Below, in pieces: positions 1,398 to 59,376 of a stretch of 64,000 bases of DNA. This DNA comes from Methylobacterium aquaticum (GTDB taxonomy: Bacteria; Pseudomonadota; Alphaproteobacteria; Rhizobiales; Beijerinckiaceae): NCBI RefSeq assembly GCF_016804325.1, contig NZ_CP043627.1, positions 4,043,001 to 4,107,000 on the forward strand, written 5' to 3'. Position numbers and translations under genes: made by a program. The stretch's first letter is position 1. The number at the start of each line of letters is the position of its first letter. Under the pieces are notes generated by a model that worked only from the letters and a program-made list of their open reading frames with translations, was not told the origin of the DNA and searched no databases.

Positions 1398-1413
1398 CGT
1401 TTCACGTGAAAAC
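1398..1413. other. parS-like ParB-binding site
   Basis: The 16-mer CGTTTCACGTGAAAAC lies in the short mnmG/mnmE gap. It matches the bacterial parS consensus TGTTTCACGTGAAACA at 13 of 16 positions, including an uninterrupted GTTTCACGTGAAA core. parS sites are the centromere-like loading sites for ParB and usually lie near oriC and parAB. ParB binding here is an inference from sequence and position. Confidence 0.7.
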
Positions 1414-1429: not shown

Positions 1430-2743
1430 TCATTTGCCGATGCAGAAGCTCGAGAACAGGCGATCCAGCATCTCTTCGACCCCGACGCGCCCGGCCACCT
1501 CGCCGAGGGCGCGGATAGCGAGGCGAAGATCCTCCGCCACCAATTCCGCCGGCAATTCGGCGCCCATTGCGACGACACGATCGAGGTGACGGAGGCAGCG
1601 TTCGAGGGCGAGCCGCTGCCTTTCGCGGGTGACCAGGGCGTCCCCACTGCCGAGAGACGCTTCGGCGCTGCGTTCGAGCGCGGCAAGGAGCCGGTCGAGG
1701 CCGTTGCCGGTCCGGGCCGAGACCGCGATTGTCCCATCGGGTACCGCTTCGGACAGATCGACCTTGGTGGCGACGACTAGGACCGGGACGGAGAGGGGAG
1801 GGGGCGCGTCACCCCCCGGCTCGCATAGCCACAGCACCAGATCGGCTTGATCGATGCGGCGACGGCTGCGGGCCACACCCTCGACCTCGATCGCATCGGT
1901 GCTGTCGCGCAGACCGGCCGTATCGACGAGAAGGACGGGCAGACCGCCGAGATCGCATCGCACCTCGATGGCGTCCCGCGTCGTACCGGGGATGTCCGAG
2001 ACGATCGCGACATCGCGGCGGGCCAGCGCATTCAGGAGCGTCGATTTGCCGGCATTGGGAGCACCGGCGAGAACGACCGTGAAACCGTCCCGCAGGCGCT
2101 CGCCCCGGCGGCCATCGGCGAGGGTGGCGCGGATCGCATCGCGCGCGTACGAGGCGGCAGAGCGAGCAGCCTCGGGCAAGGCCTCGTCGTCGACATCACC
2201 CTCGTCGGAGAAGTCGAGGGCGGCTTCCGTCGCGGCGAGTACGTCGAGAAGCGTGGCCCTCCAGCCCTCGACCGCTCGACCGAGGGCACCGTCGAGCTGG
2301 CGTACGGCCTGCCGCCGTTGCGCCTCGGTCTCGGCATCGATCAGGTCGGCCAAGCCTTCGACCGCGGTCAGATCCATGCGGCCGTTGAGGAAAGCCCGGC
2401 GCGTGAAGGCTCCGGCCTCCGCCGGCATCAGACCGGGCATGTCGCCGAGGCTGCGCAAGACCGCTGCGCGCACGGCCGGCCCACCATGGAGGTGGAGTTC
2501 CGCCATGTCCTCGCCGGTCGCAGTGCCCGGTCCGGGCAGCCAGGCAATTAGGGCATGATCGAGGAGATCTCCGGTCGCCGGCTCGCGCAGCATGCGCAAC
2601 GACAGGCGGCGTGCCGGTGGCAGGGGTGACCGGATCAGCGTGGAGAGCGCGCGGCCGGCCTGCGGCCCACTGATCCGCACGACGGCGACGGCGGTGCGGC
2701 CATAGCCGGTCGCGGGGGCGTAGATGGTATCGAGGGGCAGCAT
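1430..2743 (-). CDS. mnmE: MnmE (TrmE), tRNA modification GTPase
   Basis: GTPase partner of MnmG in U34 tRNA modification. The 437-residue protein has the N-terminal tetrahydrofolate-binding fold (from IYAPATGYGRTAVAVVRISG) and a central helical region. An inserted G domain follows, with P-loop GAPNAGKS at about residues 227-234, DIPGTTRD (G2), DTAG (G3) and TKVD (G4, a variant of NKxD). The protein ends in FCIGK, the invariant C-terminal Cys motif needed for modification. Length is normal for the family. It is transcribed leftward ahead of mnmG, with an 87-bp gap. The ATG at 2743 begins exactly at the conserved N-terminus. Confidence 0.98.
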   Translation of the reverse strand: MLPLDTIYAPATGYGRTAVAVVRISGPQAGRALSTLIRSPLPPARRLSLRMLREPATGDLLDHALIAWLPGPGTATGEDMAELHLHGGPAVRAAVLRSLGDMPGLMPAEAGAFTRRAFLNGRMDLTAVEGLADLIDAETEAQRRQAVRQLDGALGRAVEGWRATLLDVLAATEAALDFSDEGDVDDEALPEAARSAASYARDAIRATLADGRRGERLRDGFTVVLAGAPNAGKSTLLNALARRDVAIVSDIPGTTRDAIEVRCDLGGLPVLLVDTAGLRDSTDAIEVEGVARSRRRIDQADLVLWLCEPGGDAPPPLSVPVLVVATKVDLSEAVPDGTIAVSARTGNGLDRLLAALERSAEASLGSGDALVTRERQRLALERCLRHLDRVVAMGAELPAELVAEDLRLAIRALGEVAGRVGVEEMLDRLFSSFCIGK

Positions 2744-3527
2744 GGAGAGTTCGAAAGGCCGAGCCGAGTCGCGACGCCGGGATGGCGGCGCGAGCCGTGG
2801 CTAGCACGAAGCGACGGTCGTGCCGATGTGGCGAAGGCCGCAGACGACACCGTGACGACGGCAGTGCTTGCGGGCGGTCCAGGGAGGGGAGGGGTTCGGG
2901 ATGGCGGTTGGAACGGAGCCTGCCTGGGCTCGGCGCCGCCGGACGCCGATGCACGCCACGAGGGCGGCACAGCATACAGGGGTGAAGCGATGCCCGGAAC
3001 GGGCGCCCGTCCCCCTGTGTGACCTCGTCTTGGAGAGGGCAGACGATCGAAGTTCGTTCGTTCTCGCGGAGGCCCGAGCCATCGCCGGGCTTCCGGACCC
3101 GTCGCTCGATACTCCTTCGAGATGCATCCCGGAGCTTGGTCGGGCTGATCGATCCCGGATACCCTGCCGTGATCTTCTCGTTGTCCCGTGGCTGATCGAG
3201 ACCGACCCGGGATCCATCACCGCGAATCGGCTCGAAGATCGGGCGCGGAAACCGATCCATCCCCGCCGTATCCGGCGTCGTGAGCGGCGATGGTTCCAGG
3301 GTCTCGCTGCGCGCCCCCGGACGACCGGGCGAGTTTCGCTGAGCTTCCGGCTCACCCGCAAGGTTTCAGGATCAGCCCCACCGGCAGGAGAGACCGGCGC
3401 CGGGGACGAACCGACCTGTCGCAGACCACGAGGCAGGGCAGACACCTCGCGGGGTCCCCCAAACGGCGACGGCGCCCCTGTCGGGGCGCCGCGCGAAGAA
3501 GTTCGGAAATCCCGACCGGCGGTCGGA
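2744..3527. other. Intergenic region between mnmE and rho
   Basis: About 780 bp with no frame that looks like a gene: the open frames here are Arg/Ser-rich and resemble no family. It contains the rho terminator hairpin at its right end and, at its left end, presumably the mnmE promoter. Its base composition is slightly less G+C-rich than the flanking genes. I see no RNA gene. Confidence 0.55.
3470..3491 (-). terminator. Terminator-like hairpin downstream of rho
   Basis: Perfect 9-bp GC-only stem (CGGCGCCCC / GGGGCGCCG) with a TGTC loop, 37 bp past the rho stop on the minus strand. Only a short T stretch follows (TCGCCGTTT), so intrinsic termination may be weak. Confidence 0.6.
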
Positions 3528-4841
<1,314 letters not shown>

Positions 4842-5361
4842 GGGATATCGGGGTGCGGGGGCGAAGCGGGAGGCGTCATGTCAGGACAGGTCCGGCTGCC
4901 GCGGGGCGCGGCATCGAGCGGAAGCAACGGGGTGGCCTGAAGCGGGGCACCGGTCGCGAAGTCGTCGCCTGATTGTCCCGGAGGTCGCGAGGGGGAGCCG
5001 GAGGGCTCTGGATGCGACGTGACGTGACGATGGAGGAGGGAACGACTTTATGTAACGGGTCCTCGTCGTCGACTCAAGTCCCCGATGGGGAAAAGTGGGG
5101 AAAGGCGCGGTGCGGCGGCTCCGCAGGAGAAGGGGGCCCGGCACGAACGGGCCGGTTGTGCTCCAAGCAGGGCGAACTATCGGCGCAGTCGTCGCGTCGC
5201 CGCATTAACATTTGGAGGATCGAACCGCGATGCCCGCGTCTCGATCATCGGCCCGGGGCGCCCGTCCCAAGCATCTCCGGGCGACGATCGATGTAGGCCG
5301 GCAATACGGCACAGTATCCCCGTGACGGGCGCGAGGTGCGATGGAATCGGCGGAACGCGGA
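4842..5361. other. Intergenic region between rho and smr
   Basis: About 520 bp that would carry the rho promoter and leader on the minus strand. It includes a locally A/T-richer patch near 5040-5060 (ACTTTATGTAACG). No convincing gene, RNA or repeat was found. It is also the junction at which the rho-mnmE-mnmG block meets the smr-mltA-tim44 block. Confidence 0.5.
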
Positions 5362-5955
5362 TCAACGACGCCGCAGGCGGATATAGAGGGCGCCGCCGCC
5401 GCCATGATGATGGGCGGCCTCCTCGAACCCGACCACCAGGGCGCGCAGTTCGGGCAGGCGCAGCCAGTGCGGGACGCTGCGGCGCAGGACGCCGCGCTCG
5501 GCGTAAGGGTCGCCGCCGTTTCCGCCCTTGCCGGTCACGACCAGGACCACGGCGTGGCCCGACGCCCGGGAGCGGTGCAGGAAGCCGATCAGGGCCGCAT
5601 GGGCCTCGGCCTGTCGCATCCCGTGCAGGTCGATCGAGGCATCGACGCTGCGCGAGCCGCGGCGCAGGGCGGTGCGCACCCGCCGCTCGAGCGGTGCCAG
5701 GGGCGGCAGGGCCGGGGCGGGCGGAGGCGGAGCCGGAACGGCCGGAATCTTCTTCGCGGCGCCTCGCGGGGCCGGCCGGACAGGCCGAACCGGGACGGGC
5801 GGCGGCGCAGACGGCGGTTCCGGCGGTGGGGGAGGGGAGGGGATGGCGGGCACGGCCCGGCCCCGCAGGGGCGTGACCAGCCGGGCGATCTCGCCCCAGA
5901 GCCGGCTCTCCTCCGAGGTCAGGCGGCGCAGCCGGCGCGGACGGAACTCGGTCAC
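5362..5955 (-). CDS. smr: Smr-domain protein
   Basis: Small MutS-related (Smr) domain protein, a family with DNA or RNA nicking or binding activity; the physiological role in alphaproteobacteria is unclear. The protein is 197 residues from a GTG at 5955 that overlaps the mltA stop (GTGA). It has a basic N-terminus, a Pro/Ala-rich linker (about residues 45-95), then the Smr domain: IDLHGMRQAEAHAAL, VVLVVTGKGG, RGVLRRSVPHWLR and a C-terminal HHGGGGALYIRLRRR. The LHG and TGKG motifs are the family signature. The overlap and the usual alphaproteobacterial order smr-mltA-tim44 support the start choice and co-transcription. Confidence 0.92.
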   Translation of the reverse strand: MTEFRPRRLRRLTSEESRLWGEIARLVTPLRGRAVPAIPSPPPPPEPPSAPPPVPVRPVRPAPRGAAKKIPAVPAPPPPAPALPPLAPLERRVRTALRRGSRSVDASIDLHGMRQAEAHAALIGFLHRSRASGHAVVLVVTGKGGNGGDPYAERGVLRRSVPHWLRLPELRALVVGFEEAAHHHGGGGALYIRLRRR

Positions 5956-7172
5956 CGCGCGACTCCGGCGGGATTCTGCTTCGGCAGCAGCACCACGAAG
6001 CGCGTGGGATCGCGCAGCAGGCCGGCGGTCGCGCCCGCCTTGGCCCCGGTGCCGAGATAGAGGTCGCCGCGGGCGGGACCGAGGATCGCCGAGCCGGTAT
6101 CCTGCGCCACCACGAGACGACGCAGCGGCGTGCGACCGCCCTCCGGCTCCGGCAGCGTTCCGTCGAGCCAGAACGGCAGACCGTAGCGCCACAGGGTGGC
6201 ATCGACCGCGAGGCTGCGCCCGGCGGTCAGCGGCACCCCGGCCCCGCCGCGCGGGCCGGCCCCCTCAGGGATGCCGTCGTCGATGCGAAAGAAGATATAG
6301 GAGGCGTTGCGGCGGATCAGGTCGCGGGCGAAGCCTGGATTGTCCCGCAGCCAGCCGGTCCAGCGGTCGAGCGTCAGGCCCTCGAGCGGCAGGTGGCCAC
6401 CAGTGACGATGAGCCGGGCGACCGAGGTGTAGGGCCGGCCGTTGCGGCCGTCATAGGCCAGGCGCACGGAACGACCGTCGGGCAGGCGCACCCGCCCGGA
6501 GCCCTGGACCTGCAGCACCAGGAGGTCGACGGCGTCGCGCAGCCAGAGCAGCGGACGGGCCCTGGGCCCGAGCGCCCCGTCCTCGATCGCGGCCCGGTCC
6601 GGGTAGGGCAGGAACGCGTCGCCGTCGCGGCGCGCGGCGCGCAAGGCGGGGTCGAGGCCGGGCCGGGTCTCGCCGGGCTCCAGCGAGACGAGGTCGTCGG
6701 GGCGCGCGAGCGCCGGCACGGTGAAGTCCGGGGTCCGGACCGGCGAGCCGAAGAGTTCGGGCTCGAAATAGCCGGTGAGAAAGCCGGCCTCGCGCTCCGC
6801 CGCCGCGTCGCGGTTCGGCCGCAGGACGCGATAGGCGGAGAAATTCTGCTCGAAGAACGCCGTCGCGCCCTCGGGCGGCACGCCGGCTGCGGCGGCGCAG
6901 GGCGCGGAGAGGTCCTGGCGCGGCGCGTCGGGCGCCGCCTCGGCGAGGACCGGGCCGGCTTGGGCCGCGCAGGTCGCCCGGAAGGTCGCGAGGGCGGCCG
7001 CGAGGTCGTCGCCGGCAAAGCCCGTCAGGGCGCTGAAGGGGATGGGCTCGAGCGCGGCCTCGCCGACCCGCAAGGGGGCGGACTTCGCGCCAGCGGCGCC
7101 GCAGGCAAACAGCGCGGCAAGCAGCAGGGCGGCGGGACGGGCGGCGAGAAGGGGGCCGAGGGCCGGCGGCAT
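5952..7172 (-). CDS. mltA: MltA-family membrane-bound lytic murein transglycosylase A
   Basis: Cleaves the MurNAc-GlcNAc bond of peptidoglycan, forming 1,6-anhydro ends, in the periplasm. The 406-residue protein begins with a hydrophobic signal sequence (residues 8-30, with a Cys at 24 that could be a lipobox-like site, though the motif is poor). The MltA domain follows: FLTGYFEPEL, LLVLQVQGSGRVRLPDG and SYIFFRIDD. The C-terminal 3D domain has VVAQDTGSAILGPARGDLYLGTG, whose Asp residues are the conserved acid catalysts. Length is normal. It sits between tim44 and smr and overlaps smr by four bases. Confidence 0.95.
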   Translation of the reverse strand: MPPALGPLLAARPAALLLAALFACGAAGAKSAPLRVGEAALEPIPFSALTGFAGDDLAAALATFRATCAAQAGPVLAEAAPDAPRQDLSAPCAAAAGVPPEGATAFFEQNFSAYRVLRPNRDAAAEREAGFLTGYFEPELFGSPVRTPDFTVPALARPDDLVSLEPGETRPGLDPALRAARRDGDAFLPYPDRAAIEDGALGPRARPLLWLRDAVDLLVLQVQGSGRVRLPDGRSVRLAYDGRNGRPYTSVARLIVTGGHLPLEGLTLDRWTGWLRDNPGFARDLIRRNASYIFFRIDDGIPEGAGPRGGAGVPLTAGRSLAVDATLWRYGLPFWLDGTLPEPEGGRTPLRRLVVAQDTGSAILGPARGDLYLGTGAKAGATAGLLRDPTRFVVLLPKQNPAGVAR

Positions 7173-7308
7173 GGGCTTATCGGGCTCCGGCCCCGGATTG
7201 CTAGTGTGCTGTGTCTATCGCGAGTGCCGTCGGGGTGATGGATGATCCCGGCGGCGCGCCATTGTCGGCGAGGGCCGGCGGCCGATCAAGCCGCCGAACG
7301 GGGAAGCC

Positions 7309-8034
7309 CTACTGCCCGGCCTCGGTGGCGACGAGCTGCCAGTTCGGGTCGCGACTGCCGAGCGTGCGGGCGAAGGTCCAGACATCGGTCACGTCGACGA
7401 CCTTCTCGGGGCTGCCGTCGACCACCTGGCCCTGCGGCCCGCGGGTGGCGGTGATCAGCTTCGAGAGGTAGCGCACCGTGACCTGGGCGACGCGGTTGCG
7501 CACGTCGACCCCGACGATCTCGGCCCGGTCGATCGACACGAAGGTGGTCTCGACGGTCTGGCCGGCGCGCTCGCGGCCCTGGATCGCCCGCTCGAACCCG
7601 TCCGCGACCTCGCGCGACAGCAGGGTCTTGAGGGTCTTACGGTCGCCCTTGGCGAAAGCCGTGACGATGGTCTCGTAGGCCGACTTGGCGCCGTCGGTGA
7701 AGGCGCGGGGATCGAAACCCGGCTCCTGCTGGAGGATCAGGTCGAGGCCGCGGGCGGCGGGCGAGTTCGGCTCGACCACGCCCTTCCAGTTGCGCGGCAC
7801 CGCGGTCGCCACCGGCGCGGCGGCGGCGCCCCGCTCCGGGCCGGCGCCGGGCAGCCGCACGACGTTGTCGCCGTCGCGGGAGGCGGCCGGCGGCTCCTCG
7901 CGCCGCGCCAGCGGGTTGAAGGGCGGCCGCTCGCTCCCGGTCTTCTGGCCGAGGACCGAGCGCAGCTTCCAGATCACGAAGACCGCAAGCCCGAGGAAGA
8001 TGAGGGTCGTAAGGTCGAGGGAATCCTGCATCAT
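7309..8034 (-). CDS. Tim44/TimA-like membrane-associated protein
   Basis: Bacterial Tim44-domain protein, about 241 residues. It starts with MMQDSLDLTTLIF and a single membrane helix (about residues 8-25, LIFLGLAVFVIWKLRSVLG). A charged linker follows, then the Tim44-like domain, which begins around EPGFDPRAFTDGAKSAYETIVTAFAKGD and ends WQLVATEAG. The mitochondrial relative tethers Hsp70 to the import channel; the bacterial role is unsettled. The start is uncertain: a 12-base tandem duplication (AACGGATCGATG twice) creates Met codons at 8046, 8034 and 8031. I prefer 8034 or 8031, because the family usually begins just before the membrane helix. It is divergent from secB. Confidence 0.85.
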   Translation of the reverse strand: MMQDSLDLTTLIFLGLAVFVIWKLRSVLGQKTGSERPPFNPLARREEPPAASRDGDNVVRLPGAGPERGAAAAPVATAVPRNWKGVVEPNSPAARGLDLILQQEPGFDPRAFTDGAKSAYETIVTAFAKGDRKTLKTLLSREVADGFERAIQGRERAGQTVETTFVSIDRAEIVGVDVRNRVAQVTVRYLSKLITATRGPQGQVVDGSPEKVVDVTDVWTFARTLGSRDPNWQLVATEAGQ

Positions 8035-8465
8035 CGATCCGTTCATCGATCCGTTCTTGGCGGCTTCCTTGGCGGCTTCCCTGGCAGCGTCACGCGCAGC
8101 ATTCCTGACCGCCCCGGTACAGCTTGCGACATCTCCGGCACCGCGACGGCTTTGGCACCGGGACCGGGGCAAGGCAAGCGTCCGGCCGGCGCCGCCTCGC
8201 GGCCCATTCGGACGATATGGGGCCGGAGCCTCGCGGTATCCAGGCGCCTCCCGCGCGCGGAGGTGTTCGGGGTCATCCAGGGTAAGCCGGCCTGCCGTCG
8301 TGACCGGGTCGCTCGAGGCCGCCGCACGGGGGAGATGATCGGCACCTCTGCTTGTTCACGGGTTACGGGCATGATAGCCGCAACGCCGTCGTCGCGCGCG
8401 CCGTTTTTCGCGCCAGCGCACGTCGGCCCGTCGTTCACGTCCAGCCCTCGAAGGAACCCTCCGCC
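8035..8465. other. Divergent promoter region between tim44 and secB
   Basis: About 430 bp between two divergent genes, presumed to hold both promoters. Beside the tim44 start lies repetitive sequence (GCCGCCAAGGAAGCCGCCAAG on the minus strand). fxsA, sometimes found at this place in relatives, is not visible. No other feature is recognised. Confidence 0.5.
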
Positions 8466-8963
8466 ATGGCCGATTCCCCGGTCCCGAACGGTAACGGTGG
8501 CGCCGCGGCGCAGCCCGACGACCTCACCCCGACCCTCAACGCCCTGGCCCAGTACGCCAAGGACCTCTCCTTCGAGAACCCGAACGCGCCGCGCTCGCTG
8601 CAGCCGCAGCAGCAGGGCCCGCAGATCAACATCCAGGTCAACGTCAACGCCAAGCAGCTCGCCGAGGAAGACTTCGAGGTCGACCTGCGGCTCGAGGGCG
8701 ATGCCAAGATCGGCGCCGAGGTGCTGTTCGCGTTCGAGCTGACCTATTCGGGCATCTTCCGCCTGCGCAACATCCCGCAGGACCAGATGCACCCGGCGGT
8801 CATGATCGAGTGCCCGCGGCTGCTGTTCCCGTTCGCCCGCCAGATCATCGCCGACGCGGTGCGCAACGGCGGCTTCCCGCCGCTCTACATCGACCCGATC
8901 GACTTCGTCGGCCTCTACCGCCAGAAGGCCGCCGAGGCCCAGATGCAGGGCGGCAACGCGTAG
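8466..8963 (+). CDS. secB: SecB protein-export chaperone
   Basis: Tetrameric cytoplasmic chaperone that keeps precursor proteins unfolded and hands them to SecA. The 165-residue protein shows the SecB core: [73 protein letters not shown] and IDFVGLY. Length is normal for alphaproteobacteria. The ATG at 8466 is preferred over upstream in-frame codons because it begins the conserved region (MADSPVPN). It is divergent from tim44, and a GC-rich hairpin follows the stop. Confidence 0.98.
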
Positions 8964-41111: not shown

Positions 41112-42031
41112 CAGGCGCTCCGCCGGAAGAGCAGCAGGACCGGCAGCAGCGCGAGGCCGGCGAGCCAGCGGCCGAGATCCTGCCAGGCCAGCACCGTGTA
41201 GCCGCCCTCCGCGAGATGGCGGGCGACCGTCTCGGAGATTGCCGCCAGGACCGGGCCCGGCGCGTCGAGGCTGCCGGCCGTGCCGCCGCCGAGGGTGGCG
41301 AGGCGGGACAGGGCGCCGCCATCGGGCCGCGGCGCCTCCGGCGGCAGGGCGGTGTTCGTGACCAGTACGGTGTGTAGCCGATGACCCTCCTCCCGGAGCG
41401 CGGACGCCTCGCGGGACGCGGCGTCGTCGAGGCCGCCGCCGTCGCTCACCAGCACCACGTCGCCGGTCACCACCGCGCCCTCGGCCAGCGTCCGGCGGGC
41501 CAGCGCCAGGGCGCGGGCCGGGTGGCTGCCGCGATCCGGCACGGTGGCGCCGTCGAGGGCGAACAGGATGGTGCTCAGGGAATCCCGGTCGGTGGTCGGC
41601 GTCGCGGCGAGGTAGGCGTCGCCCGCATAGGCGATGACGGCGACCGCCTTCGTGCCGGCGGCCTCGGCCAGGCCTTGCGCCAGCGCCCGCGCCTCGGCGA
41701 GGCGCCCGCCCTCGGCGACCGAGCGCGACAGGTCGAGGGCGATGATCGTGGCGTCGAGGTTGCGGAACCCCGCCACGTCGCGGCGCTCCCGCGCCGGGCC
41801 GGCAAGGCCGAAGGCGAGGAGGGCGGCGGCCAGAACCAGCAAGCCCTGCCCGACGCGCCGCCCCGGCCGCACCGCGCCGCGGGCGGCGAGCGCCGCCATC
41901 AGGTGCGGCTCCACCGCCTTCACCCAGTCGCCGAGTGGCGCGGAGCGGTGGGCGGCACGCCAGGCGAGCAGCCCGAGGAGCGGCAGGGCGAGGAGCCACC
42001 ACGGGCGCAGGAGCGTGAAGGCCTCGGTCAC
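41111..42031 (-). CDS. VWA-domain membrane protein (BatB/MxaL-like)
   Basis: A 306-residue protein from a GTG at 42031 overlapping the previous stop (GTGA). An N-terminal membrane helix (RPWWLLALPLLGLLAWR) and a second (GQGLLVLAAALLAFGLAG) flank a cytoplasmic segment. The von Willebrand A domain carries a MIDAS motif, LDLSRS (about residues 99-104), and VVLVSDGGGLDD. A C-terminal membrane anchor is LAGLALLPVLLLFRR. It pairs with the next VWA gene and, in related operons, links MoxR chaperone activity to a periplasmic client. No stop or frame problem is seen. Confidence 0.88.
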   Translation of the reverse strand: MTEAFTLLRPWWLLALPLLGLLAWRAAHRSAPLGDWVKAVEPHLMAALAARGAVRPGRRVGQGLLVLAAALLAFGLAGPARERRDVAGFRNLDATIIALDLSRSVAEGGRLAEARALAQGLAEAAGTKAVAVIAYAGDAYLAATPTTDRDSLSTILFALDGATVPDRGSHPARALALARRTLAEGAVVTGDVVLVSDGGGLDDAASREASALREEGHRLHTVLVTNTALPPEAPRPDGGALSRLATLGGGTAGSLDAPGPVLAAISETVARHLAEGGYTVLAWQDLGRWLAGLALLPVLLLFRRSA

Positions 42032-42996
42032 GCCGCCCTCCGGGTCAGCAGGAGGACCAGCGCGGAGAGAAGCGCGACCCCGCCCGGCCACGGCCACAGG
42101 TCGCGGCGCAGGGGCACCGGCGGGGCCCGGTCGCGCCCGCCCTCCAAGGCGTCGATGCTGTCGGCGACGCCGGCCAGGTCCTCGGTGGTGCGCACCCGGA
42201 AGAACCGGCCGCCGCTCGTCGCCGCGACGTCGCGCAGGGCGTCCGAATCGACCACGTCCTGCTCGCCGTCGGCGTCGGCGAGGTCGCGGGGGCCCAGCGC
42301 GATGGTGTGGACCCGGATGCCGAGCTCGTGGGCGAGCACCGCCACGTCCCGCGGCGTGGTCTGGCCGGCATTGTTGGCGCCGTCGGAGAGCAGGACCACC
42401 ACCTTGGACGGGCCCGGCAGGGCGTCCAGGCGCTTCACGGCGAGGCCGAGCCCGTCGCCGATGCCGGTCGAGCGGCCGACGAGGCCGATCTGCGCCTCCT
42501 CCAGCGCCCGGGCGACGGCGCGCGTGTCGAAGGAGGGGGCGGCGGCCACGTCGGCCTGGTCGGCGAAGATCACGAGGCCGACCCGGTCGCCGGCCCGGCG
42601 GCGGATGAACTCGGCCCCGACGCGCTTGACCGCCGCGAGCCGCGACGAGGTGCGGCCGTCGAGGGCAAAGTCGATCCGCGCCATGCTGCCCGACAAATCG
42701 AGGGCGAGCACGATGTCCCGCCCCGAGGCCGGGAGCGCCGCGCCGGGCAGGACCAGCCGCGGGCCGGCGAGCGCCGCCACCAGGGAGACCCAGAGCAGCC
42801 AGGTGAGCGCCGCGCGCCCGCGCACCCCGACGGTGAGCGGCCCAGCCCGATCGAGCCCGGCGACCAGGGACGGCGGCACCGCCAGCGCCCCGCTGCCGCC
42901 CGGCCGCGGCGGCAGGAAGCGGGCGGCCAGGAGCGGCAGCGGCAGGAGCAGGCCGGCAAGCGGCGCGGCGACATCGAGGGAGGCGAGACCGGCCAT
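42028..42996 (-). CDS. VWA-domain membrane protein (BatA/MxaC-like)
   Basis: A 322-residue protein: an N-terminal hydrophobic stretch (LAGLLLPLPLLAARFL), a second helix (RAALTWLLWVSLVAALAG), then a VWA domain with a complete MIDAS (DLSGSM at residues 100-105; TGIGDGLGLAV; LLSDGANNAG). A C-terminal helix is VALLSALVLLL. In the methanol-dehydrogenase operon the equivalent gene is mxaC. It follows the DUF4381 gene by a few bases and overlaps the second VWA gene, so the operon is tightly packed. Confidence 0.9.
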   Translation of the reverse strand: MAGLASLDVAAPLAGLLLPLPLLAARFLPPRPGGSGALAVPPSLVAGLDRAGPLTVGVRGRAALTWLLWVSLVAALAGPRLVLPGAALPASGRDIVLALDLSGSMARIDFALDGRTSSRLAAVKRVGAEFIRRRAGDRVGLVIFADQADVAAAPSFDTRAVARALEEAQIGLVGRSTGIGDGLGLAVKRLDALPGPSKVVVLLSDGANNAGQTTPRDVAVLAHELGIRVHTIALGPRDLADADGEQDVVDSDALRDVAATSGGRFFRVRTTEDLAGVADSIDALEGGRDRAPPVPLRRDLWPWPGGVALLSALVLLLTRRAA

Positions 42997-43000
42997 CGTC

Positions 43001-43453
43001 TCAAGCCTTCAGGTGCGCGAGGAGCCGGGCGAGACCGGCTTCCGCGGCGGCGAGATCGGGCACGGGGCCCGGGGCGTAGAGATTGTCGGTCAGCGCGCGG
43101 CCGGGGCCGTTGCCGAAGAAATCGGTGCGCAAGGCGGCGTCCAGCCCCGCCGGCTCCTCGACCCCGAGGCTGCGGGCGAGGCGCCGGCTCAACCGCGCCA
43201 GCGCGACGCGGCGCTCCGGCGGCGGCAGGGCGCGGGCGGCGGCGAGTTCGGCGAGCGCCGCCCTGCGGATCGGGCGGCCGCGCCAGCGCGGCGCGAGCCG
43301 GACGGCAAGCCACGCCAGCGCCAGGCCGGCCGCGACGGCGGCCAGGATGTCGAGCCGGATCCAGGCCGGATCGGGCGGGGCGTGCAGGCCGCGCAGACCC
43401 GCAAGCCCGGCTTGAATGGGCTGCGCCGCGTGGGCTCCCTCACAGCACGGCAT
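43001..43453 (-). CDS. DUF4381 family membrane protein
   Basis: A 150-residue protein with one membrane helix (LDILAAVAAGLALAWLAVRL) and a cytoplasmic Arg/Ala-rich helical domain: AALAELAAARALPPPERRVALARLSRRLARSLG. DFFGNGPGRALTDNLYAPGP is characteristic of DUF4381. These proteins occur in MoxR-DUF58-VWA operons in the position of mxaA-like components; their function is unknown. The start overlaps the DUF58 stop by 14 bases. Confidence 0.8.
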   Translation of the reverse strand: MPCCEGAHAAQPIQAGLAGLRGLHAPPDPAWIRLDILAAVAAGLALAWLAVRLAPRWRGRPIRRAALAELAAARALPPPERRVALARLSRRLARSLGVEEPAGLDAALRTDFFGNGPGRALTDNLYAPGPVPDLAAAEAGLARLLAHLKA

Positions 43454-44354
43454 CGAGCCGCTCCATCAGGGGGGCGAAGCCTTCCGGACCCAGTTCGGTG
43501 TCGAGGCGCAAGCCCGTGAGACCGAGGCGGGCATAGGCCGCGAGACGATCCTCGGGCGCCGCCCGCGCCTTGCCGATGCGGGCGGTGCCGCGGCGCCCGT
43601 CCGGGGTGGCGTAGGGGTAGAGGCCCGGGGGCGCGGCGCGCTCGAAGGCGTCGCTCACCAGGATCAGGCTGACGGAGACCCGCTCGGCCAAGGCCGCCAC
43701 GCTCTCCGAGAAGCCCTCGCCCGGGGCATCGAGGGCGCTCGCCAGCACCAGGTGCCCGCCCGCCGGCAGCAGCGCGCGGGCCCGTTCCAGGATCGGGCCG
43801 AGGGGCGGATCGGCGTGAGGCGGGGCCGCCAGCGCGCTCTCATGCGCCCGGGCGAGGCCCTGGCACAGGGCCGCCATGCCGCGCCCGCCGGCCCGCGGCG
43901 GCAGGGCGACCGGCTCGGGCGCGGCGGCGCAGAGGCCGACCCGGCCGCCATCGCCGGCGATGCGCCAGCCGAGCAGCACCAGGGCCTCCGCGGCGGCGAC
44001 CGAGCGGAGCGCCCGGCGGGTGCCGAACAGCATCGAGGGCCGGAAATCGGCCAGCAGCACCACGGCGCGGTCGCGCTCCTCGTGGTGGGTGCGCACGTGC
44101 AGCGTGCCGGTGCGGGCGGTGGCGTTGCGGTCGATGTGGCGCACGTCGTCGCCATCAGTCCAGAGGCGCACGTCGTCGGGCTCGCTGCCGCGGCCGCGCC
44201 GCCGGGTGACGATGCCGCCGGGCAGGCCCGAGCGGCCCTGCATCGTCGCCCCGGCGCCCCGGCGGGCGAGGTGGCGCAGGCCCATCAGCGCCCCGGCGTC
44301 CAGGGCGATGCCGGGTGCGCCGAGCGGGTCCGTGCTGGGGAGCGGCCGTGCCAC
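43440..44354 (-). CDS. DUF58 family protein (MxaS-like)
   Basis: A 304-residue cytoplasmic DUF58 protein with a VWA-like fold. It begins from a GTG at 44354, with GAGGA upstream, near RPLPSTDPLGAPG. The signature part is RSGLPGGIVTRRRGRGSEPDDVRLWTDGDDVRHIDRNATARTGTLHVRTHHEERDRAVVLLADFRPSMLFG. RHIDRNATAR is the core DUF58 motif. In methanol-oxidising bacteria mxaS is this family and follows mxaR (MoxR), the same order seen here. Function: adaptor of the MoxR ATPase, inferred from family context. Confidence 0.88.
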   Translation of the reverse strand: MARPLPSTDPLGAPGIALDAGALMGLRHLARRGAGATMQGRSGLPGGIVTRRRGRGSEPDDVRLWTDGDDVRHIDRNATARTGTLHVRTHHEERDRAVVLLADFRPSMLFGTRRALRSVAAAEALVLLGWRIAGDGGRVGLCAAAPEPVALPPRAGGRGMAALCQGLARAHESALAAPPHADPPLGPILERARALLPAGGHLVLASALDAPGEGFSESVAALAERVSVSLILVSDAFERAAPPGLYPYATPDGRRGTARIGKARAAPEDRLAAYARLGLTGLRLDTELGPEGFAPLMERLDAVL

Positions 44355-57910: not shown

Positions 57911-58741
57911 TCAATCGGCGATGAACTTCAGCCGGTGCTCGCGGTGGAGATCGACGATCGCCGCCGCGGTCTCCTCGATCGAGCGCCGGGTGACGTCGAT
58001 CACCGGCCAGCGGTTGCGGGCGAAGAGCCGGCGCGAGCTCGCGATCTCGTTCGCCACCGCGTCGCGGTCGACATAGGACGAGGAATCGTCGGCCTTGAGG
58101 CTGAGCAGGCGGTTCTGGCGGATCTGGACGATCCGCTCCGGCGAGGCGATCAGCCCGACGATCAGCGGCTGGCGCAGGGTCTCGAGGATGGCCGGCGGCG
58201 GCACGCCGGGGATCAGCGGGATGTTGGTGGTCTTCAGGCCGCGATTGGCGAGGTAGATCGCCGTCGGCGTCTTCGAGGTGCGGCTCACCCCGAGGATGAT
58301 CACGTCCGCCTCGTTGAGGTCGTGCGGCAGGTTGCCGTCGTCGTGGGCGAGCGTGAAGTTCATCGCGTCGATGCGCTTGAAGTACTCCGCGTTCAGCATG
58401 TGCTGCGCCCCCGGCCGGGCGGTGGAATGGGTGCCGAGATAGGCCTGCAGCAGCTGGTGGACCGGCTCCAGCACCGAGAGCAGCGGCGAGCCGGTGGCCC
58501 GGCAGGCCTCCTCCAGCCGCTCGGTCAGCTCGCGCCCGACCAGGGTGTAGAGCACGATGCCGGGGGCCTGCTCGATCTCGTTGATCACCCGTTCGAGCTG
58601 GGTGCCCGAGCGCACGAGCGGATAGACGTGCTCGATCGCCGAGACCCCCTCGTACTGCGCCGCCGCGGCGCGGCCGACATTGATCAGGGTCTCGCCGGTG
58701 GAGTCCGACACGAGGTGGAGGTGGAAGTAGCTGCGGACCAC
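57911..58741 (-). CDS. ppsR: Pyruvate, phosphate dikinase regulatory protein (PpsR/DUF299 family)
   Basis: Bifunctional serine/threonine kinase and phosphorylase that controls PEP synthase or pyruvate phosphate dikinase. The 276-residue protein starts [29 protein letters not shown] and shows [35 protein letters not shown], the P-loop-like element, and [21 protein letters not shown]. The GTG at 58741 is preferred over an ATG at 58786, because the conserved [14 protein letters not shown] begins there. It is the gene next to oriC in many alphaproteobacteria, and here too the next gap is the origin candidate. Confidence 0.93.
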
Positions 58742-58935
58742 GCGGGCTCCCCGGGCTCGCCGCGGGCGCGGCGGACGCAAGAGCATCTTTGCGACGGCAT
58801 GGACGGTGCCTGTCGCAAAAATGCAGAAAGATCAAGCACCTGAAGCGGCGTCCGATGGACGGGCGATCGGGCGCCGCTCCAGCGAGTCCGCTGCCCGGTG
58901 GGTCGTCCACCGATCGGCGGCGCGGAGTCGATGAG

Positions 58936-58944
58936 TGTGGATAA
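58936..58944 (-). promoter_or_regulatory. DnaA box
   Basis: TGTGGATAA, the exact complement of the consensus TTATCCACA, in the oriC candidate region. DnaA binding is expected from the perfect match and location. Confidence 0.8.
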
Positions 58945-59132
58945 TCCGCCTGCGCAGGCAGGTCCAGGCGGGAGGCCTGTGGGTTAACGGCTCAACGGCT
59001 CAACAGGCCGGACGTTAACACTCGTGGCGGGCCGCCCGTGGGAGAATCCGGGACGTGGACCCGCCGAGTCCGCCACGGCAGGGCGCAAGCCCATGGTGAC
59101 TCTCGTGATCCTTCGACAATGGAGCAAATCTG

Positions 59133-59147
59133 TTAAAGGCCTCTTAA
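59133..59147. promoter_or_regulatory. CtrA-type binding site
   Basis: TTAA-AGGCCTC-TTAA exactly matches the alphaproteobacterial CtrA consensus TTAA-N7-TTAA and lies inside a GTTAA...TTAAC dyad in the origin candidate. In Caulobacter such sites let CtrA silence oriC. Binding is inferred. Confidence 0.65.
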
Positions 59148-59376
59148 CGCACCGGCGGTGGGGACGGGCTGTGGACGGGGCTGGAGCCCCGCGATGCCTG
59201 CCCCCAATAGAAAAAACAGATTCCTAGAATCTCTCTTTTCTTTTCAGAGGCCTGGGTGGGGATGGGCATCGTGGCGGGTCGCGACCAAGCGTCGGGCTGG
59301 CGCGCGGCAGCGGTTCTCGGCATAGGGAGAGCCGAGCCGCCGGCGTGGCGGCAGAAGGTTTTCGGGGGGACGGAGC

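What the first reader, a model, noticed from the sequence alone, without database searches (positions are those of the whole stretch)
58742..59376. Chromosomal origin with DnaA, CtrA and GANTC elements
The ppsR/hemE gap holds a perfect DnaA box (58936-58944), an exact TTAA-N7-TTAA CtrA site (59133-59147), extra TTAAC elements, several GANTC sites and an A/T-rich tract at 59208-59245, with genes reading away on both sides. CtrA-controlled origins are known from Caulobacter; a CtrA-type site in a Methylobacterium-like origin would suggest origin silencing beyond Caulobacter.
Basis: partly seen in the sequence, partly recalled or inferred. Interest (0 to 1): 0.8.

Follow-up and report, generated by a model that had tools for sequence, protein, structure and literature searches.

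The report
Methylobacterium origin with built-in CtrA site
The gap between two genes in this Methylobacterium chromosome looks like the place where DNA copying starts and carries a precisely positioned docking site for the cell-cycle regulator CtrA, but the chromosome's strand-orientation signals are centred on a separate segregation site about 59,000 bases away.

Summary
The gap (58787-59376) is a rigid module. In 37 of 37 distinct Methylobacterium gap sequences, TTAA-N7-TTAA sits 208-210 bp from a GAGTC/DnaA box, 37 bp from a TGTGGA core and 75-77 bp from an A/T-rich tract, while distances to the estimated gene starts vary by over 130 bp and the spacer is poorly conserved. That fits a nucleoprotein origin better than hemE or ppsR promoters. 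Flanking genes match the Caulobacter and Rickettsia origins; dnaA is 2.5 Mb away. Most likely it is the chromosomal origin, with CtrA an inferred direct regulator. Microvirga keep parS within 11 kb. Either origin and segregation centre have separated, or the active origin is near parS. Marker-frequency sequencing would decide.

The parts
57911..58786 (-). ppsR (COG1806/DUF299 kinase-pyrophosphorylase), left flank
   Evidence: PF03618, 303.7 bits
59377..60465 (+). hemE, uroporphyrinogen decarboxylase, right flank
   Evidence: PF01208, 346.1 bits
58787..59376 (.). ppsR-hemE gap = proposed chromosomal origin; only well conserved intergenic region of the five tested nearby
   Evidence: blastn hits in 9 of 9 Methylobacterium loci against 0-2 of 9 for four other, shorter intergenic regions
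58925..58931 (+). GAGTCGA (holds a GANTC site), 208 bp before the CtrA site
   Evidence: 208-210 bp from the CtrA site in 37 of 37 distinct gaps
58936..58944 (-). perfect DnaA box TTATCCACA
   Evidence: same place: TGTGGATAA in 18 of 37 distinct gaps, TGTGGATAG in 10, GGTGGATAA in 6, TGGGGATAA in 3
58961..58968 (+). GGTCCAGG, conserved element of unknown role
   Evidence: GTCCA at +37 from GAGTCGA in 34 of 37 distinct gaps; A1
59039..59054 (+). TGGGAGAATCCGGGAC, conserved block containing a GAATC site
   Evidence: GANTC at -89 from the CtrA site in 31 of 37; A1, A2
59133..59147 (.). CtrA-type palindrome TTAA-N7-TTAA(C)
   Evidence: exact in 30 of 30 genus gaps and in 12 of 12 of the first set; no other spacer from 3 to 11 occurs in those 12
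59170..59175 (-). TGTGGA, DnaA-box core, 37 bp from the start of the CtrA site
   Evidence: 37 of 37 distinct Methylobacterium gaps
59205..59247 (.). A/T-rich tract (proposed unwinding element) with two GANTC sites at 59219 and 59227
   Evidence: 75-77 bp after the CtrA site in 37 of 37; second least stable 50-mer peak of the window; GANTC at +85/86 and +93/94
59257..59263 (-). TGGGGAT, resembles the Caulobacter W-box (its consensus recalled, not from a call)
   Evidence: TGGGGA at +123 to +125 from the CtrA site in 25 of 37 gaps
1399..1412 (.). parS-like GTTTCACGTGAAAA (one mismatch); the exact parS lies 600 bp left of the window at C1:4042401
   Evidence: all 5 hits (up to 1 mismatch) in the genome lie between C1 3,993,582 and 4,052,026

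Best explanation
The ppsR-hemE gap is the chromosomal replication origin of this Methylobacterium and works much like Caulobacter Cori. Proposed mechanism: DnaA assembles on the box at 58936 and the TGTGGA core at 59170 and opens the A/T-rich tract at 59205-59247. Phosphorylated CtrA on the palindrome at 59133-59147, 37 bp from the core, blocks or tunes that assembly. GANTC methylation at fixed places, two of them in the tract, may mark replicated origins. Shown: the sites, their conservation, their fixed spacing, the gene context, a CtrA orthologue and further palindromes beside genes of a CtrA-like kind. Inferred: initiation here, DnaA and CtrA occupancy, repression, methylation. In this genus the origin would have separated from parS, which has kept the strand-polarity centre.
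For: Gene order matches the origins of Caulobacter and Rickettsia (PMC1914354 passages). Exact palindrome in 30 of 30 genus gaps held with a spacing control in 12. Distances between elements vary with standard deviation 0-0.6 bp against 36-42 bp to the estimated gene starts; mean spacer identity 0.61. Same elements in Microvirga, whose second CtrA site is 38 bp from the core in the 8 of 10 loci that have it and whose parS is still 6-11 kb from hemE in 10 of 10. No DnaA-box cluster at parS or at dnaA in this genome. CtrA orthologue 85% identical; other palindromes beside fliL/flgE-F-G type, two rod-protein, chemotaxis, PilZ and ftsK genes.
Against: KOPS polarity switches at parS, not at the gap, in 4 of 7 genomes examined; the other three do not settle it, and in G010 a switch at the gap is not excluded. 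GC skew gives no support, and in G036 it changes sign at parS. No IHF consensus in 12 of 12 gaps; with one mismatch in 8 of 37 and at most 4 at any one place. Only one perfect DnaA box here, and a perfect one in only 18 of 37 gaps. In Microvirga TTAA pairs at other spacers also occur (N3 in 10 of 10, N6 in 6 of 10). Conservation cannot prove initiation.
Confidence: 0.68

Rival explanations
1. The active origin lies at or near the parS-parAB-rsmG-mnmG-mnmE cluster at the left edge of the window (C1 about 4.034-4.046 Mb). The ppsR-hemE gap is a retired origin or a control region that has moved away.
For: KOPS polarity switch within error of parS in G000, G024 (close relatives, same arrangement), G008 and G036, with the gap 59-430 kb away on either side. 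In G036 raw GC skew is negative in all five 20-kb bins left of parS and positive in all five to the right. Also in G036 a TTAA-N7-TTAA word and a low-GC stretch lie together 17 kb beyond parS (not followed up).
Against: In this genome the four intergenic stretches tested around parAB-mnmE-rho hold no DnaA box (up to 1 mismatch) and no CtrA palindrome, and no DnaA-box cluster lies nearby. The gap module keeps its geometry in G036 (L155) and WSM2598 (L072), where it lies about 400-430 kb from parS. KOPS and GC skew can reflect segregation rather than replication (PMC6199493 passages).
Confidence: 0.19
2. The gap is only a divergent ppsR/hemE promoter region controlled by DnaA, CtrA and GANTC methylation, and not an origin in this genus.
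For: CtrA and DnaA also act at promoters in Caulobacter (PMC2877005 passages). Two genes diverge from the gap.
Against: Distances from the elements to either gene vary widely while the elements keep fixed distances from each other over about 290 bp (gene starts estimated by alignment).
Confidence: 0.09
3. Replication starts beside dnaA, where genome records of this genus are often rotated to begin.
For: By convention the origin of the M. extorquens AM1 and DM4 chromosomes was set upstream of dnaA (PMC2680597 passages). In 6 of 10 genomes dnaA lies within about 2 kb of the contig start.
Against: No DnaA box (up to 1 mismatch) in the 3.5 kb dnaA locus here; parS lies 2.4 Mb away.
Confidence: 0.04

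Closest known systems
Caulobacter crescentus Cori (hemE/COG1806 origin)
   Same: hemE and COG1806 (ppsR) flanks, A/T-rich region, DnaA sites, TTAA-N7-TTAA CtrA site (Cori as described in PMC1914354 and PMC4468827 passages)
   Different: One CtrA palindrome instead of five; one perfect DnaA box plus a TGTGGA core; no IHF consensus; parS 59 kb away (about 8 kb in Caulobacter, recalled); dnaA 2.5 Mb away
Rickettsia prowazekii and Wolbachia/Ehrlichia hemE-side origins
   Same: hemE-flanked gap with DnaA and CtrA sites outside Caulobacter (PMC1914354 passages)
   Different: CtrA site number varies from zero upward there; here one exact site at a fixed position in every Methylobacterium gap examined
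Hyphomonas neptunium origin
   Same: CtrA binds next to the origin (ChIP-seq, PMC7200025 passages)
   Different: A more distant group of Alphaproteobacteria; the spacing of its elements was not compared here
Sinorhizobium meliloti and Brucella abortus chromosomal origins
   Same: Same order as Methylobacterium (recalled)
   Different: S. meliloti: no CtrA motif and not bound by CtrA (PMC4433202 passages); B. abortus: CtrA shown not to bind the origin (PMC2877005 passages)

Membership tests
Cori-type (hemE/COG1806) alphaproteobacterial origin | flanked by hemE and COG1806 | tested here: met
   criteria from PMC1914354 passages
Cori-type (hemE/COG1806) alphaproteobacterial origin | DnaA boxes | tested here: met
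   one perfect box and a TGTGGA core found in 37 of 37 gaps
Cori-type (hemE/COG1806) alphaproteobacterial origin | CtrA sites TTAA-N7-TTAA | tested here: met
   one exact site, 30 of 30 genus gaps held
Cori-type (hemE/COG1806) alphaproteobacterial origin | IHF site | tested here: not met
   WATCARNNNNTTR (recalled consensus) absent in 12 of 12; one mismatch in 8 of 37, at most 4 at one place. So it is called a variant that works like Cori, not a full member
Cori-type (hemE/COG1806) alphaproteobacterial origin | A/T-rich region | tested here: met
Cori-type (hemE/COG1806) alphaproteobacterial origin | lies at the strand-polarity (GC-skew) shift | tested here: inconclusive
   GC skew weak; KOPS switch 59 kb away
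Cori-type (hemE/COG1806) alphaproteobacterial origin | replication initiates there; CtrA-P binds and represses | not testable with these tools
   needs marker frequency, plasmid replication assay, ChIP

The most novel reading that the evidence does not exclude
In Methylobacterium the CtrA-marked replication origin (ppsR-hemE gap) and the segregation centre (parS) have come apart by 17-430 kb, and chromosome strand polarity (KOPS) has stayed with parS rather than with the origin: a natural separation of the replication start from the centromere, with polarity following the centromere.
Probability: 0.45. Interest if true: 0.82.

Novelty: new variant of a known kind. Interest (0 to 1): 0.62.

Why it matters
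In the papers seen, the origin of Methylobacterium chromosomes is not settled: for M. extorquens AM1 and DM4 no GC skew was seen and the start was set at dnaA by convention (PMC2680597, passages). A 2015 review says CtrA sites are not seen in origins other than those of Caulobacter species and possibly Rickettsia (PMC4468827, passages), and S. meliloti lacks them (PMC4433202, passages). A fixed CtrA site in this genus, with exact sites in the hemE gaps of Microvirga, Chelatococcus, Methylocella and Devosia, makes the evolution of CtrA origin control directly testable in tractable methylotrophs. The split from parS allows a natural test of whether strand polarity follows replication or segregation; PMC6199493 (passages) states that parS is invariably close to the origin.

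Tried and rejected
GC skew (raw, 4-fold sites, intergenic) is weak and does not place an origin here. An octamer search with the arms split at the gap gave no strong polar word (best z 3.6). IHF sites: none convincing. A second DnaA-rich origin at parS or dnaA in this genome: none found. G010 had no clean polarity switch: 9/19 left of one parS, 5/4 up to the gap, 14/7 beyond it up to a second parS, then 3/6, so the gap is not excluded there. G045 had too few sites (by eye: 4/6, 3/5, 3/2). G033 leaned towards parS (by eye: beyond the gap 2/7, between 4/11, beyond parS 9/4 up to 420 kb) but depends on the cut: 20/14 up to 800 kb. Microvirga was not uniform: L083 and L087 lack the exact palindrome. 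A CcrM gene was not searched for. In the broader set, 16 of 28 other ppsR-hemE gaps and 22 of 31 loci without a recognised ppsR lack the exact site.

Full report
Check of the observation. All sites are present at the stated coordinates. The window is C1:4043001-4107000 of a 6,988,191-base contig; the closest named relatives by HemE are Methylobacterium frigidaeris and M. nonmethylotrophicum, 94% identity. The TTAA-N7-TTAA word occurs 32 times in 7.28 Mb; 1 of 5000 shuffles of the gap contains one. Seven GANTC sites lie in the gap against 0.96 from the window average; 3 of 2000 shuffles reach 7. The perfect DnaA box is one of 8 in the genome, fewer than the 13 of its control, but the only one in the 532 kb held around it.

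Gene context. Leftwards: ppsR, maf, aroE, coaE, dnaQ; rightwards: hemE, hemJ. These flanks match the Caulobacter and Rickettsia origins, which lie between hemE and COG1806 (PMC1914354, passages). rho and mnmE, which I recall as neighbours of hemE in relatives, lie 54 kb to the left (window 1430-4841), beside mltA, tim44 and secB; parB-parA-rsmG-[parS]-mnmG follow at and just beyond the window's left edge. dnaA is at C1:1,598,282, 2.5 Mb away; in 10 of 10 other genus genomes examined it is also about 1 Mb or more from ppsR (for six of them the contig length is only known from the rounded genome size).

Conservation and rigid geometry. Aligning 12 Methylobacterium gaps shows invariant blocks (A1). 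The gap gives blastn hits in 9 of 9 genus loci, whereas four other intergenic regions, all shorter (156-251 bp), give 0-2 of 9. The palindrome is exact in 12 of 12, with no such word at spacers 3-6 or 8-11, and in 30 of 30 gaps from a second draw (59 genomes were searched, only the 30 best loci were held, one of them the window's own). Pooling both sets gives 41 gaps, 37 distinct. In 37 of 37: GAGTCGA to CtrA site 208-210 bp, CtrA site to TGTGGA 37 bp, CtrA site to A/T-rich tract 75-77 bp. By contrast ppsR start to CtrA site spans 210-346 bp and CtrA site to hemE start 154-361 bp; these gene starts are extrapolated from alignments to the window's proteins, so part of that spread may be annotation. 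My script looked for GAGTCGA within 190-230 bp of the CtrA site and used the TTAAAG form of the palindrome; no distinct gap was lost by either filter. Mean identity is 0.61 in the spacer, 0.86-0.91 in the three box elements and 0.67 over the A/T-rich tract. GANTC sites also keep fixed places: about -208 in all 37 (as part of GAGTCGA), -89 in 31 of 37, and near +86 and +94 in about 36 and 35. The sequences are related, so these are not independent trials. I read this as a nucleoprotein scaffold, hence an origin, rather than two promoters.

Other genera. In 8 of 10 Microvirga gaps there are two exact palindromes; the second sits 38 bp from the core, and the DnaA box is 259-260 bp from the core in 10 of 10, against about 235 bp in Methylobacterium. 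Across 81 loci (80 fetched plus the window): 12 of 12 Methylobacterium, 8 of 10 Microvirga, 12 of 28 other ppsR-hemE gaps and 9 of 31 loci without a recognised ppsR carry the exact word; the nine are all titled Devosia. The spacing control is not clean everywhere: in Microvirga N3 pairs occur in 10 of 10 and N6 in 6 of 10, and N6 in 5 of the 31. Enterovirga and Chelatococcus have their site farther from the core, 57-90 bp, so sites have been gained or lost.

Is it a CtrA site? I took 19 stretches covering 21 of the 31 other palindromes (my choice, not random; several of the ten left out lie in A/T-rich sequence), plus the ctrA region. By my ORF model two palindromes lie wholly in an ORF and one overlaps an ORF start by 8 bp; the others are intergenic. 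Neighbours include FliL and a FlgE/F/G-type protein, two rod proteins, a chemotaxis receptor, PilZ, BcsS, polysaccharide export and FtsK, but also dihydrodipicolinate synthase, an oxidoreductase, DsbD and a metallo-beta-lactamase fold; 14 of the 37 proteins scanned (two of them from the ctrA region) had no Pfam match. No palindrome lies in the 2.2 kb held around ctrA itself. This agrees with a CtrA regulon; binding was not tested.

Where is the polarity centre? All 5 parS-like sites (up to 1 mismatch) of the genome lie at 3.99-4.05 Mb, the exact one 59 kb left of the gap. KOPS (GGGNAGGG) counts forward/reverse in G000: beyond parS 30/71, between parS and gap 19/7, beyond the gap 47/19; best change point 4,043,389 (3-lnL range 4,033,998-4,045,886). 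In G024 (close relative, same arrangement): 12/40, 19/3, 39/16; change point 4,362,252, parS 4,361,916. In G008, where the gap lies on the other side: beyond parS 30/9, between 10/21, beyond the gap 13/36; change point 1,239,398 (range to 1,283,224), parS 1,240,182. In G036, 430 kb apart: beyond parS 25/5, between 12/40 (sampled parts only), beyond the gap 12/14. Fisher tests, between versus beyond parS: p = 8e-5, 8e-7, 3e-4, 1e-7; between versus beyond the gap: p = 1, 0.24, 0.62, 0.07. A whole-genome pattern search in G036 agrees: 5/12 left of the gap, 0/4 between, 10/0 in the first 0.4 Mb beyond parS, mixed farther on (counted by eye). G033 leans the same way weakly, G045 is uninformative, and in G010 the switch cannot be placed and the gap is not excluded. 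So 4 of 7 genomes, two of them close relatives, show a clear switch at parS; none shows a clear one at the gap. On the whole-chromosome scale this genome has further sign changes, so it is much rearranged. GC skew is weak throughout, as reported for M. extorquens (PMC2680597, passages), except that in G036 it changes sign at parS.

How unusual is the split? An exact parS lies within 11 kb of hemE in 41 of 80 named loci, including 10 of 10 Microvirga, and in 0 of 11 Methylobacterium (several other loci are too short to tell). The truncated listing shows 37 of the 59 genus genomes: in 30 an exact parS and ppsR share a contig, nearest distance 17-428 kb; in 7 they are on different contigs (and 35 for G010; tabulated by hand).

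Interpretation. KOPS guides FtsK and mirrors segregation; in Pseudomonas aeruginosa GC skew and KOPS bias were argued to reflect different phenomena (PMC6199493, passages). A switch at parS therefore does not by itself move the origin. Retention of the full module in genomes about 400 kb out of register with parS argues that the gap still has its job. I put the origin at the gap at about two in three, an origin near parS at about one in five.

Literature. Searches of the open-licence library listed nothing on a CtrA site at a Methylobacterium origin or on parS-origin separation in the genus, as far as titles and abstract starts show; subscription papers are mostly not held. For every paper named here I saw only passages found by term. 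Brassinga 2002 was seen only as cited in those passages, Taylor 2011 likewise.

Noticed in passing
window 58961-58968 and 59039-59054: Two further conserved blocks (GGTCCAGG and TGGGAGAATCCGGGAC) inside the module whose binding protein, if any, I do not know; GTCCA keeps its distance from GAGTCGA in 34 of 37 distinct gaps.
   Followed up: partly
window 1430-8963 and the stretch up to 54817: rho-mnmE and mltA-tim44-secB lie beside parAB about 46-54 kb from dnaQ-ppsR-hemE; G008 has the two blocks in the opposite order with the mnmG-rsmG-parA-parB piece inverted in place, pointing to repeated rearrangement around parS.
   Followed up: partly
G036:C1:1599621-1599780: A TTAA-N7-TTAA word beside a low-GC stretch 17 kb beyond parS; could be an ordinary promoter or a second origin candidate.
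   Followed up: no
G000 C1 and C5, nine places listed: Nine weak Bac_DnaA matches, eight with the same score and eight in open frames of 613-614 aa, on the chromosome and on C5: probably one multicopy mobile element.
   Followed up: no
G000:C1:540001-560000 and 1620001-1640000: Stretches of 44% and 53% GC in a roughly 70% GC chromosome, likely islands.
   Followed up: no
window 42001-44000: GC 0.782 with AT skew 0.237, the strongest AT skew of the 2-kb bins in the window.
   Followed up: no
L141 (Maritimibacter) with G068: The exact parS listed lies about 650 kb from hemE, taking C1 as the named chromosome, so separation may not be limited to Methylobacterium.
   Followed up: no
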